A stretch of 64,000 nucleotides of DNA, from the NCBI RefSeq assembly GCF_000316665.1, contig NC_019678.1, forward strand, positions 5,146,001 to 5,210,000. Reading direction: 5' to 3'. The notes under the pieces are model-generated. The model saw nothing but the letters and a program-made list of their open reading frames with translations, made no database searches and was not told the DNA's origin. The position numbers were made by a program, and so were the translations under genes. This DNA is from Rivularia sp. PCC 7116 (GTDB lineage Bacteria; Cyanobacteriota; Cyanobacteriia; Cyanobacteriales; Nostocaceae). Shown here in pieces: positions 58,206 to 60,955 of this stretch (its first letter is position 1; each line of letters starts with the position of its first letter).

Positions 58206-58360
58206 CGGAATTGGTAATTGGTAATTGGTAATGGGTAATTGGTAATAGTTAATTAGGAACAGTGAAAAGCTAAGAGTTAAAAGTTAATAATTCTTTTTGC
58301 CCAATGCCCAATGCCCAATGCCCAATGCCCCATTACCCATTACCCATTACCCATTCTCAG
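58206..58360. repeat. Heptamer tracts downstream of prfB
   Basis: TTGGTAA units (58206-58245) and TGCCCAA/TTACCCA units (58298-58357). The latter supplies the last codons and stop of prfB. Confidence 0.9.
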
Positions 58361-59463
58361 TTACTTGGTTTTCCTGCCTTAGATAAGCTTGAATGAAGGA
58401 ATCTAATTCTCCATTCATTACGTCAGTTATAGCCGTTGTTTCGATGTTGGTACGCAAGTCTTTCACCATCTGGTAAGGATGGAATACGTAGTTACGTATT
58501 TGGTTTCCCCAGCTTGCTTCTACCATATCGCCGCGAATTTCAGCGATTTCTTGGGCGTGCTGTTCTTGAGCCACAACCAACAGCTTGGCTTTCAGACGAG
58601 CGAGGGCTTTTTCTTTGTTTTGTAATTGCGAACGTTCTTCAGTACATCGCACGGCGATATTTGTTGGAATATGCACAATTCGTACAGCGGTTTCTACTTT
58701 GTTAACGTTTTGTCCGCCTTTACCGCCAGCCCTAGATGTAGTAATTTCTAAATCCTTGTCGGGGATATCTAACTCTACATTGTCATCTATCTGCGGCATG
58801 ATTTCCACGCCTGCAAAACTAGTTTGTCGCTTACCGTTGGCGTTGAAAGGAGAAATCCTTACCAAGCGATGGGTGCCCATTTCCGAACGTAAATAGCCGT
58901 AGGCATAGCGTCCCGTAATTTCCAGCGTTACCGATTTTATACCAGCTTCATCTCCGTCTGATTTATCGGTGATAGCAACTTTGTAGCCGTGACTTTCTCC
59001 CCAACGGGTATACATTCGCAGCATCATTTCCGCCCAGTCTTGAGCATCAGTACCGCCAGCACCGGCTGTAATAGTAAGTAAAGCGCCTTTACTATCGTAG
59101 GGACCAGAAAGTAACTGCTGCAACTCCCACTGGTCGAGTTCGCGGTTGAGAACTGTAACGTTAGATACAGCTTCGCTAAGTAGGGACTCGTCAGTTTCGG
59201 ATTCCAAAAGTTCGACAACTGCCTTGGTATCCTCTAAGCTAGAATGCCAGTCATGATACTGCTGCAAATGTTCTTTGAGTTCGTTAAGCTCTTGCATCGT
59301 ATCTTGAGCCTTATTTTGATCTTCCCAAAACTCTGGCTGCGCTGCGATTTGTTCTAAATCTTGAATTTTAGCTTTGAGTGCGGGTAAGTCAAAGATAGTC
59401 CTGAGTTTTACCCAGGCGATTAGATAACGTTTCGATTTCGCGTTTGATTTCTAGAACTTCCAT
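58347..59463 (-). CDS. prfB: Peptide chain release factor 2 (programmed +1 frameshift)
   Basis: RF2, which ends translation at UGA and UAA. The full gene starts at ATG 59461-59463, reads 24 codons ([17 protein letters not shown]...), meets an in-frame TGA at 59389-59391 and shifts +1 at CTT-TGA-C to continue as [14 protein letters not shown], giving 371 residues. The stop-reading SPF motif is in [10 protein letters not shown], and the peptidyl-tRNA hydrolysis GGQ is in [13 protein letters not shown]. Length is normal. The stop is inside a heptamer repeat. A divergent tandem paralog lies upstream at 59695-60781. Confidence 0.96.
59386..59403 (-). promoter_or_regulatory. prfB programmed frameshift site
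   Basis: On the minus strand AGGACTATCTTTGAC. CTTTGAC is the classic RF2 slip site: low RF2 lets the ribosome shift at CTT before TGA is read, restoring RF2. AGGA three codons upstream acts as the internal Shine-Dalgarno sequence, weaker than the E. coli AGGGGG. Confidence 0.92.
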
Positions 59464-59694
59464 ATTTGTTTCTATTTGTTAGCTTTGATGCTTCTAGAAT
59501 CTGTGTGTATTTTATATTCCTTTTTGATTCTAGCGATTGTCTGGAAATTTTTCTCGTTTTAAAAAGTGAATTGAGAATTGAGAATTGGGCATTGGGCATT
59601 GGGCATTGGATATTAATTACAGATGGTGCGTGACGGCAATTTCGATTTATTCCGTTGTGTTTGGAAATTTATCATCTGCGTACACACCCGAAAA

Positions 59695-60781
59695 TTAATG
59701 CATTTGTTTGAGATAGGCTTTGGTAAACAAATCCAGATTCCCTTTCATCACTTCCTCAATCTCAACCGTTTCTACGTTGGTACGTGAATCTTTGACTTTT
59801 TGGTAAGGATGAAAGATGTATTCGCGGATTGGGTTATCGAGTGTAGTTTTCGGGGATGGCTTTTTGACATCCTTAAGTGCAACACCTTGAATTTGCATTA
59901 GTGCGAATAATTTGCTTTTGACACAAACTAAAGCTTTTTCCAGATTAGCTAAGTGATTACGCTTTTCAGTAGATGTGACGGAAATACCGGTAGGAATATG
60001 AGTTACTTTTGCTAATGGACTTGGCCCGCGCATATAAGTATGTTTGCCTCTGAGAACTTCCAAATCCCGTTGTGGAATCTCAAAATCCATCGACTCATCC
60101 ACAATCGGCGCAACTTCTAACTTTGCAAAACTAGTTTTGATTGCAGGCTTTTTGCGAAAAGGTGAAATTCGCTTTAGCTGATGAATTCCTTGTTCGGATT
60201 TTAGATATCCGTAAGCATATTTACCAGAAATTTCCAAAGTCACATAGTTAAATCCGCAAAATTCTCCTATGGATTCATCCAAAAACCGAAGCTTGCAGTC
60301 ATGATTATCGCACCAGTGGGCGTACATTCGTTGGAGCATTTCTACCCAATCTTGGCAATCTATATTGCGATCGCAAGCAGTAATAGTAACAAATGCTCCT
60401 TTATCATCAAAAGGTTGATTCAAAAGATTTAGAATCTCAACATGTTTGAGTTTGCTGCTTAAAAATTCATATGTAGTTCGCAATTCTTGTTCTAACTGTT
60501 CGTCAGATTCCGATTCCAGAAGCTGTAAAGCTGCTTTGGCATCGTTTAAACAAGTCTGCCATTCTCGGTATTCTTCTTGCTCGCGGAATATTAAATCAGA
60601 TAATTCTTGAAGGGAGTTTTGAGCAATTAGAGTGTCTTGCCAGAATTCAGCTGTGATGAGTTGCTTTTCTAAATTCCGAACTCTTGCTCTTATTTTATGA
60701 ATGTCAAAGACAGTCTTGGGGTTGGCTGAGGAACTTAGATAACATTTCGATTTCTTGTTTTACTCGTGATAGTGCCAGCAT
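59695..60781 (-). CDS. RF2 paralog lacking the GGQ motif, with retained frameshift site
   Basis: A release-factor-2 homolog in tandem with prfB. The complete gene starts at ATG 60779-60781 (MLALSRVKQEIEM), runs 25 codons to TGA at 60704-60706 and, if shifted +1 at CTTTGAC, continues DIHKIRARVRNLEKQ through AEFWQD and the rest to 59695, giving 361 residues. The domain-2 stop-codon motif SPF is kept (LKRISPFRKK), as are IPTG and FHPYQKVKDSRTN. The GGQ loop is replaced: where RF2 has [13 protein letters not shown] this has a shorter HTYMRGPSPLAK. It cannot hydrolyse peptidyl-tRNA by the known mechanism. It may compete with RF2 or have a regulatory or rescue role. Annotation from the inner TTG alone (262 residues) would hide the N-terminal domain. 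Confidence 0.85.
60701..60718 (-). promoter_or_regulatory. Frameshift site in the RF2 paralog
   Basis: On the minus strand AAGACTGTCTTTGAC. CTTTGAC matches that of prfB, and the preceding text differs only slightly; the internal Shine-Dalgarno-like AGGA is AAGA here, which may lower shifting. Confidence 0.8.
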
Positions 60782-60955
60782 TATTTTATTTTTTTAAGGA
60801 CACGTTATGTATTGTAGTACAAATACAGGTCAAAGGTTAAAAGTTAGAGTTTCATAATGGATGGTGCGTGACGGCACTTTCAATTTATCTCGTTGTGCTT
60901 CGATCATTTATCGTAGCCGTCGCGCACCCTACAATATTTATTTGCAAATTGTGAC

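What the first reader, a model, noticed from the sequence alone, without database searches (positions are those of the whole stretch)
59695..60781. A GGQ-less RF2 paralog that keeps both the SPF motif and the prfB frameshift site
Directly upstream of prfB is a full-length RF2 homolog (361 residues after a +1 shift). Seen in sequence: an N-terminal domain in a second frame, CTTTGAC at the same codon position, SPF retained, and HTYMRGPSPLAK where RF2 has [13 protein letters not shown]. By known mechanism GGQ is essential for peptide release, so this protein should read UGA/UAA without releasing. Its reading frame is otherwise intact, which argues against simple decay. Inference: a competitor, regulator of RF2-dependent frameshifting, or a ribosome rescue or recoding factor. 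I know of no described family with this combination.
Basis: partly seen in the sequence, partly recalled or inferred. Interest (0 to 1): 0.9.

Follow-up and report, generated by a model that had tools for sequence, protein, structure and literature searches.

The report
Release-factor-2 twin lacking its catalytic motif
A cyanobacterium related to Rivularia carries, next to its normal release factor 2 gene, a conserved twin that lost the part that frees finished proteins but kept the unusual frame-shift switch, which suggests a real gene with a new and untested job.

Summary
At 59695-60781 (-), 231 nt upstream of prfB, lies a 361-residue RF2 homolog. It has an ATG-started zero-frame leader, CTT_TGA_C, then an open +1 frame. 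SPF is kept and GGQ is replaced.

It is not a local oddity. I recovered 53 distinct near-full copies: 37 from the window's family, 16 from contigs labelled Nostoc (15) or Nostocales (1). GGQ is absent in 52 of 53. All 53 keep an ATG exactly 24 codons before the shift site and a zero-frame stop there; 50 of 53 keep CTTTGAC.

Selection acts on the zero frame before the site (omega 0.29) and the +1 frame after it (0.32-0.36). The other phases tested give omega above 1. So protein and frameshift layout both look maintained.

The gene is dispensable: 24 stop-free full-length copies in 23 of 192 family genomes, broken copies in others. SPF is kept in only 25 of 53.

Best reading: a lineage-specific, non-hydrolytic RF2 paralog, probably an A-site modulator made when RF2 is short. 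Its biochemical role is untested. Nearest known analogue: plant PrfB3.

The parts
59695..60781 (-). GGQ-less RF2 paralog, complete gene (361 aa after +1 frameshift)
   Evidence: homologs
60707..60781 (-). Zero-frame leader, 25 codons from ATG through the CTT of the shift site (MLALSRVKQEIEMLSKFLSQPQDCL)
   Evidence: ATG 24 codons before CTT in 53 of 53 copies; omega 0.285 in this frame, 2.69 in the +1 phase
60703..60709 (-). +1 frameshift heptamer CTT_TGA_C
   Evidence: CTTTGAC in 50 of 53 copies, the other 3 still have a zero-frame stop
59695..60705 (-). +1-frame body of the paralog, including stop codon
   Evidence: omega 0.32 in both halves of 32 intact copies
60157..60165 (-). SPF tripeptide (stop-codon recognition motif of RF2)
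   Evidence: SPF in 25 of 53 copies
60007..60042 (-). HTYMRGPSPLAK, replaces the GGQ loop of RF2
60811..60816 (-). TACAAT, -10-like element upstream of the paralog ATG; TACAAT or a TAGAAT-like variant recurs at about the same place upstream of many homologs (judged by eye)
   Evidence: upstream stretches printed side by side; pattern scan (number of promoter-like sites not above shuffles)
58347..59463 (-). prfB, canonical RF2 with GGQ, SPF and its own CTTTGAC at 59388-59394

Best explanation
It is a functional, lineage-specific paralog of RF2 that arose by duplication of prfB and lost the GGQ loop. It is still made only when a ribosome shifts +1 at CTT_UGA_C, so, as for prfB itself, its synthesis should rise when RF2 at UGA is limiting. 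The product cannot release peptides. The most likely action is that it engages ribosomes in the RF2 way (A site, with or without stop-codon recognition) as a non-hydrolytic modulator: it would slow or reshape termination, raise frameshifting on prfB, or hold stalled ribosomes. Shown by sequence: frames, motif loss, selection on both frames, position next to prfB. Inferred from known RF2 biology: RF2-responsive frameshifting and no release. Guess: A-site modulation.
For: GGQ column empty or changed in 52 of 53 copies, against GGQ in 77 of 77 RF2. The loop is 4 to 7 residues shorter in most copies (5 in the window), and a Trp replaces the Ala of VETAV in 49 of 53, though not in the window copy, which has Leu. 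Ten positions are at least 90% uniform in the 32 intact paralogs and in RF2 but differ between them. Omega 0.33 for 37 paralogs, 0.056 for 57 RF2; same-genus copies 0.29, 2dlnL 174; 32 intact copies 0.318 and 0.317 in the two halves, 2dlnL 407 and 449. Zero frame before the site 0.285, +1-phase control 2.69; +1 frame after it 0.363, other phases 1.54 and 1.30. All 53 keep the ATG at -24 and a zero-frame stop. In the tree one branch separates 32 paralogs from 76 RF2 and 20 out-of-family RF2, with support 0.756. PCRF and RF-1 domains are both over their cut-offs.
Against: The decoding tripeptide is not conserved (SPF 25 of 53), and the SPF and GGQ regions are the most variable, so stop-codon reading may be lost in many members. 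The gene is absent or broken in most family genomes, and 4 of 8 sampled genomes of the window's own genus have no near-full copy. Copies recombine: trees of the two halves disagree. In one small subset (four copies with an internal TGA) the half before the TGA gives omega 0.68, not distinguishable from neutral (2dlnL 3.2). In the window the internal Shine-Dalgarno-like stretch before the shift site is weaker than in prfB (CCCCAAGAC against ACTCAGGAC). No transcript, protein or binding data; no structure model.
Confidence: 0.45

Rival explanations
1. PrfB3-like exaptation: the RF2 scaffold became an RNA-binding or mRNA-stabilising factor, and stop-codon reading and release were both discarded.
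For: PrfB3 of land plants is an RF2 paralog without SPF and GGQ that binds the petB 3' UTR (PMC5897788 passages). In 28 of 53 cyanobacterial copies the SPF tripeptide is changed, so codon recognition seems not to be the conserved feature.
Against: 23 of 32 intact copies keep SPF. Retention of an RF2-type frameshift site in 50 of 53 copies fits a role in termination better. No target RNA is known.
Confidence: 0.22
2. A slowly dying duplicate: long-lived but now under relaxed constraint, being lost strain by strain; no present function in many hosts.
For: 12 of 37 near-full copies in the family sample have in-frame stops and one is frameshifted; fragments in other genomes; omega about six times that of RF2.
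Against: Five same-genus copies have 0 stops against about 44 expected if neutral and omega 0.29. Neutral decay would not keep an ATG 24 codons before a zero-frame stop in 53 of 53 copies nor switch the selected frame at the shift site.
Confidence: 0.15
3. Ribosome hibernation or rescue factor by convergence with Balon, which is an aeRF1-type, GGQ-less A-site protein.
For: Balon lacks GGQ and the stop-reading motif yet binds the A site (PMC10901736 passages), so loss of GGQ in a release-factor-like protein can go with such a role.
Against: No match to aeRF1-type families: Pfam lists only PCRF and RF-1 at E up to 0.001. Retention of the RF2-type frameshift has no obvious role in hibernation.
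Confidence: 0.13
4. A cis-acting leader: translation of the upstream copy, rather than its product, tunes prfB expression.
For: Same strand and directly upstream of prfB, with a gap of 102-439 nt in 47 of the 50 copies measured.
Against: Purifying selection covers both halves of the protein. Gaps are long and variable; two genomes have 4.26 kb in between.
Confidence: 0.05

Closest known systems
Peptide chain release factor 2 (prfB, TIGR00020)
   Same: Two Pfam domains in the same order, +1 frameshift architecture, SPF in the window copy, adjacent to prfB.
   Different: No GGQ; scores 276.5 bits or 272.4 bits against a cut-off of 370; about six-fold higher omega.
PrfB3 of land-plant chloroplasts
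   Same: RF2-derived paralog without GGQ, retained beside a working RF2 (PMC5897788).
   Different: PrfB3 also lost SPF; the window copy keeps SPF and the bacterial frameshift site. Common origin not tested (no PrfB3 sequence at hand).
Balon (bacterial hibernation factor)
   Same: Release-factor-like protein without a GGQ motif that binds the A site (PMC10901736).
   Different: aeRF1-type; the window protein matches only bacterial class-I RF domains.
PrfH
   Same: Class-I release-factor homolog, distinct from RF1/RF2.
   Different: P0002 scores 28.5 bits against a cut-off of 166.65.

Membership tests
RF2 (prfB) as working release factor | GGQ motif | tested here: not met
   HTYMRGPSPLAK in its place; absent in 52 of 53 homologs
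RF2 (prfB) as working release factor | SPF stop-codon recognition tripeptide | tested here: met
   Present in the window copy; across copies only 25 of 53
RF2 (prfB) as working release factor | NCBIfam TIGR00020 score over cut-off 370 | tested here: not met
   276.5 bits; 272.4 bits in the genome search
RF2 (prfB) as working release factor | PCRF and RF-1 domains | tested here: met
   127.9 bits (cut-off 24) and 38.1 bits (cut-off 35)
RF2-type autoregulated +1 frameshift gene | Zero-frame ORF from ATG to CTT_TGA_C, then open +1 frame | tested here: met
   selection in the two frames
RF2-type autoregulated +1 frameshift gene | Upstream Shine-Dalgarno-like stimulator | tested here: inconclusive
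   GAGGA/GAAGG-like in many copies, weak in the window (CCCCAAGAC) (by eye)
RF2-type autoregulated +1 frameshift gene | Frameshifting occurs and responds to RF2 level | not testable with these tools
   needs reporter or proteomics
PrfB3 | RF2 paralog lacking GGQ | tested here: met
   definition from PMC5897788
PrfB3 | SPF also lost | tested here: not met
   SPF kept in the window copy and in 23 of 32 intact copies
PrfB3 | Binds and stabilises a specific mRNA 3' end | not testable with these tools
   needs RNA-binding experiments
PrfH | TIGR03072 score over cut-off | tested here: not met
   28.5 against 166.65 bits
Pseudogene | Neutral evolution (omega near 1, stops accumulate) | tested here: not met
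   same-genus copies: omega 0.289, 2dlnL 174; 0 stops against 44.5 expected

The most novel reading that the evidence does not exclude
A non-hydrolytic RF2 decoy: when RF2 is scarce, ribosomes shift on both tandem genes, and the GGQ-less product occupies UGA-programmed A sites without releasing. This prolongs the pause, raises frameshifting on prfB (feed-forward) and UGA readthrough elsewhere. Thirteen Nostoc-type copies carry a second in-frame UGA at codon 165, with the frame behind it still under purifying selection (omega 0.38), so the family may itself depend on UGA recoding twice.
Probability: 0.22. Interest if true: 0.88.

Novelty: new variant of a known kind. Interest (0 to 1): 0.66.

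Why it matters
GGQ is regarded as the indispensable part of a class-I release factor (recalled). A bacterial RF2 twin without it, conserved over several genera and still laid out with the textbook prfB frameshift, would be a natural separation-of-function mutant. It could show whether a release factor can act by occupancy alone, and it gives a prokaryotic parallel to plant PrfB3. Such genes are also easy to mis-annotate: even for prfB itself, 17 of 428 genes were annotated as pseudogenes or left out in one survey (PMC3711429, passage).

Tried and rejected
Rejected: assembly artefact or one-off pseudogene (homologs in many genomes). No support for a mobile origin: in the plasmid collection all 98 matching records are under 60% identity, and no viral contig encodes a confirmed relative; the phage collection was not searched. 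Rejected: the GGQ-bearing exception L042 as recent conversion from the prfB genes held; its GGQ segment is only about 73% identical to them. No remnant was found upstream of prfB in 12 genomes without a copy there (1.3-2.5 kb held, best tblastn E 0.13); one of the 12, G140, has a weak RF-like match on another contig that I did not pursue. Inconclusive: dating the duplication; the branch splitting paralogs from RF2 plus 20 out-of-family RF2 has SH-like support 0.756, and fast evolution invites long-branch error. An IQ-TREE run was stopped at the time limit and replaced by FastTree. Not inspected: third and fourth matches in some out-of-family genomes.

Dropped before counts: matches in one frame over fewer than 240 model positions, or starting after model position 3 (fragments, e.g. 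parts of L070-L080), are not among the 53, so the set leans towards unbroken frames; in-frame stops were not filtered. A copy without a CTTT(A/G)(A/G) site would have been printed as 'nosite' and dropped; none was. Copies were called RF2 if the codon before CTT was TAT and paralog otherwise; the 77 distinct RF2 so called all have GGQ and SPF. Exact duplicates were counted once.

Full report
OBSERVATION. The minus strand at 59695-60781 encodes an RF2 homolog: ATG at 60779-60781, 24 codons, CTT_TGA_C at 60703-60709, then a frame open to the stop at 59695-59697. With the +1 step it is 361 residues. prfB lies 231 nt downstream on the same strand (58347-59463; 371 residues by the same step). Pfam finds PCRF (E 5.5e-37) and a weakened RF-1 domain (E 1.7e-9, starting at profile position 35, i.e. 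without the GGQ end); RF2 itself scores 8.2e-38 for RF-1. NCBIfam prfB gives 276.5 bits against a cut-off of 370. The genome (8.73 Mb, 3 contigs, completeness 100) has four RF-1-domain genes: canonical RF2, this paralog, a 370-codon frame with GGQ that looks like RF1 (not scored with the prfA model), and a 137-codon frame.

DISTRIBUTION. Each of 192 family genomes (drawn from a larger group, own genome included) had at least one match, and 51 had three or more. I searched the 50 others of these 51 with a paralog alignment and fetched regions. Near-full paralogs: 37 copies in 36 of the 192 genomes. Of the 37, 24 (in 23 genomes) are full length without an internal stop, 12 have one or more in-frame stops, one is frameshifted. 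Others hold only fragments. Of the 141 genomes with fewer than three matches, only those drawn again in the order search met the more sensitive alignment, so fragments may be missed. In 388 genomes of the order (family members included), all matches over 490 bits lie in the window's family; the list is sorted and cut at the weak end, fragments would score lower, and extra weak matches in some out-of-family genomes were not inspected. Named relatives from genome contigs include Rivularia sp. MS3 (77-78% identity), an uncultured Calothrix, Calothrix parasitica NIES-267 (two tandem copies before prfB), Nostoc, Komarekiella and Amazonocrinis. No close plasmid and no viral relatives. Twelve genomes without a copy upstream of prfB show no remnant there.

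ANATOMY ACROSS 53 DISTINCT NEAR-FULL COPIES (37 from family genomes, 16 from named contigs). ATG exactly 24 codons before the shift codon: 53 of 53; prfB has 23 in the copies read. Site TGT_CTT_TGA_C: 50 of 53. The three exceptions are CTT_TAG_C twice (Calothrix parasitica copy 1; Nostoc sp. CHAB 5824) and CTT_TAA_C once, all still a zero-frame stop. GGQ is missing in 52 of 53; the exception is a Nostoc MAG copy (L042). In RF2 it is 77 of 77. The loop is 4 residues shorter in most copies, 4 to 7 in the window's genus (5 in the window); Trp replaces Ala of VETAV in 49 of 53, Leu in the window. The C-terminal region is the best kept large region (69% mean identity; only a short 8-residue stretch, 196-203, is higher at 76%). 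The SPF region (50%) and the GGQ end (55%) are the least kept. Upstream sequences printed side by side show a recurring TACAAT or TAGAAT-like element roughly 30-40 nt before the ATG in many copies; this was judged by eye, and the pattern scan alone is not above shuffles.

SELECTION. Codon models (GY+F3X4) give omega 0.33 for 37 paralogs and 0.056 for 57 RF2. Subsets against omega=1: window genus 0.289 (2dlnL 174); four other genus groups 0.32-0.51 (2dlnL 13-53); four copies with an internal TGA, 0.68 before it (2dlnL 3.2, not significant) and 0.30 after it (2dlnL 26). For 32 intact copies the two halves give 0.318 and 0.317 (2dlnL 407, 449). The selected frame switches at the shift site: before it, zero frame 0.285 (2dlnL 64) against 2.69 in the +1 phase; after it, the +1 frame gives 0.363 against 1.54 and 1.30 in the other phases. 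If neutral, the five same-genus copies should have taken about 44 stop-creating hits and have none; for all 53 about 331 expected, 25 stop cells observed, 13 of them one shared codon. Caveats: copies recombine (half-trees disagree), the 53 were picked as long single-frame matches, and omega tests assume one tree.

A SECOND UGA. Thirteen Nostoc-type copies share TGA at codon 165 after the shift, context TATGGC_TGA. Behind it the frame has no further stop in the 13 (21 expected if neutral), in front of it 2 (36 expected). Omega is 0.383 behind it (2dlnL 83.8) and 0.563 in front of it (2dlnL 17.8), weaker than in intact copies. The 13 do not form one clade in either half-tree, and one copy nested among them (Nostoc CHAB 5824, L127) has TGG there and also lost the UGA of the shift site. 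Readthrough is one reading; alleles moved by recombination, or early decay, are others. I do not build on it.

MECHANISM. Shown: a protein-coding gene under long-term purifying selection whose maintained reading requires the +1 shift, next to prfB, without GGQ. From established RF2 biology (GGQ recalled; the prfB signal is described in PMC3711429, passages): frameshifting at CTT_UGA_C rises when RF2 is limiting, and GGQ is needed for release. Inferred: the protein is made under RF2 shortage and cannot release. Most likely it then acts on the ribosome as a non-hydrolytic modulator (about 0.45). A PrfB3-like RNA-binding role (0.22), a dying duplicate (0.15), a Balon-like hibernation role (0.13) and a cis leader (0.05) are rivals.

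LITERATURE. Two recent prfB-frameshift papers do not contain the words paralog or cyanobacteri in their main text, and the only hits for GGQ or duplicat are reference titles (PMC12421855, PMC13245932; term searches only). Full-text searches listed no description of a GGQ-less bacterial RF2 paralog; for most listed papers I saw title and start of abstract only, some lists were cut, and the library lacks most subscription papers. PrfB3 is the nearest described case (PMC5897788, passages); Balon is a functional parallel (PMC10901736, passages).

VERDICT. Its action is unknown and testable.

Noticed in passing
L044, L048, L049, L063, L066, L103, L104, L111, L113, L115, L122, L124, L131 (codon 165 after the shift): Thirteen Nostoc-type paralog copies share an in-frame TGA, 12 of them followed by C, with the frame behind it still under purifying selection. 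L127 has TGG there.
   Followed up: partly
L038 copy 1 (Calothrix parasitica) and L127 (Nostoc CHAB 5824): The zero-frame stop of the shift site is TAG instead of TGA, so control would pass from RF2 to RF1 while the frameshift layout stays.
   Followed up: partly
L042 (Nostoc MAG NMS2): The only one of 53 paralog copies with GGQ; that segment is about 73% identical to RF2 genes held, so not a recent conversion from them.
   Followed up: partly
L065 (G136): Here prfB itself is split between two frames near model position 260-273 while the paralog is intact; a sequencing error is possible.
   Followed up: no
window 59606-59665 and 60844-60935: A dispersed repeat of about 75 bases lies on both sides of the paralog; 27 matches in the genome, itself included.
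   Followed up: partly
L043 and L045 (G141, G003): Paralog and prfB are separated by about 4.26 kb instead of 0.1-0.4 kb, and both copies carry stops.
   Followed up: no
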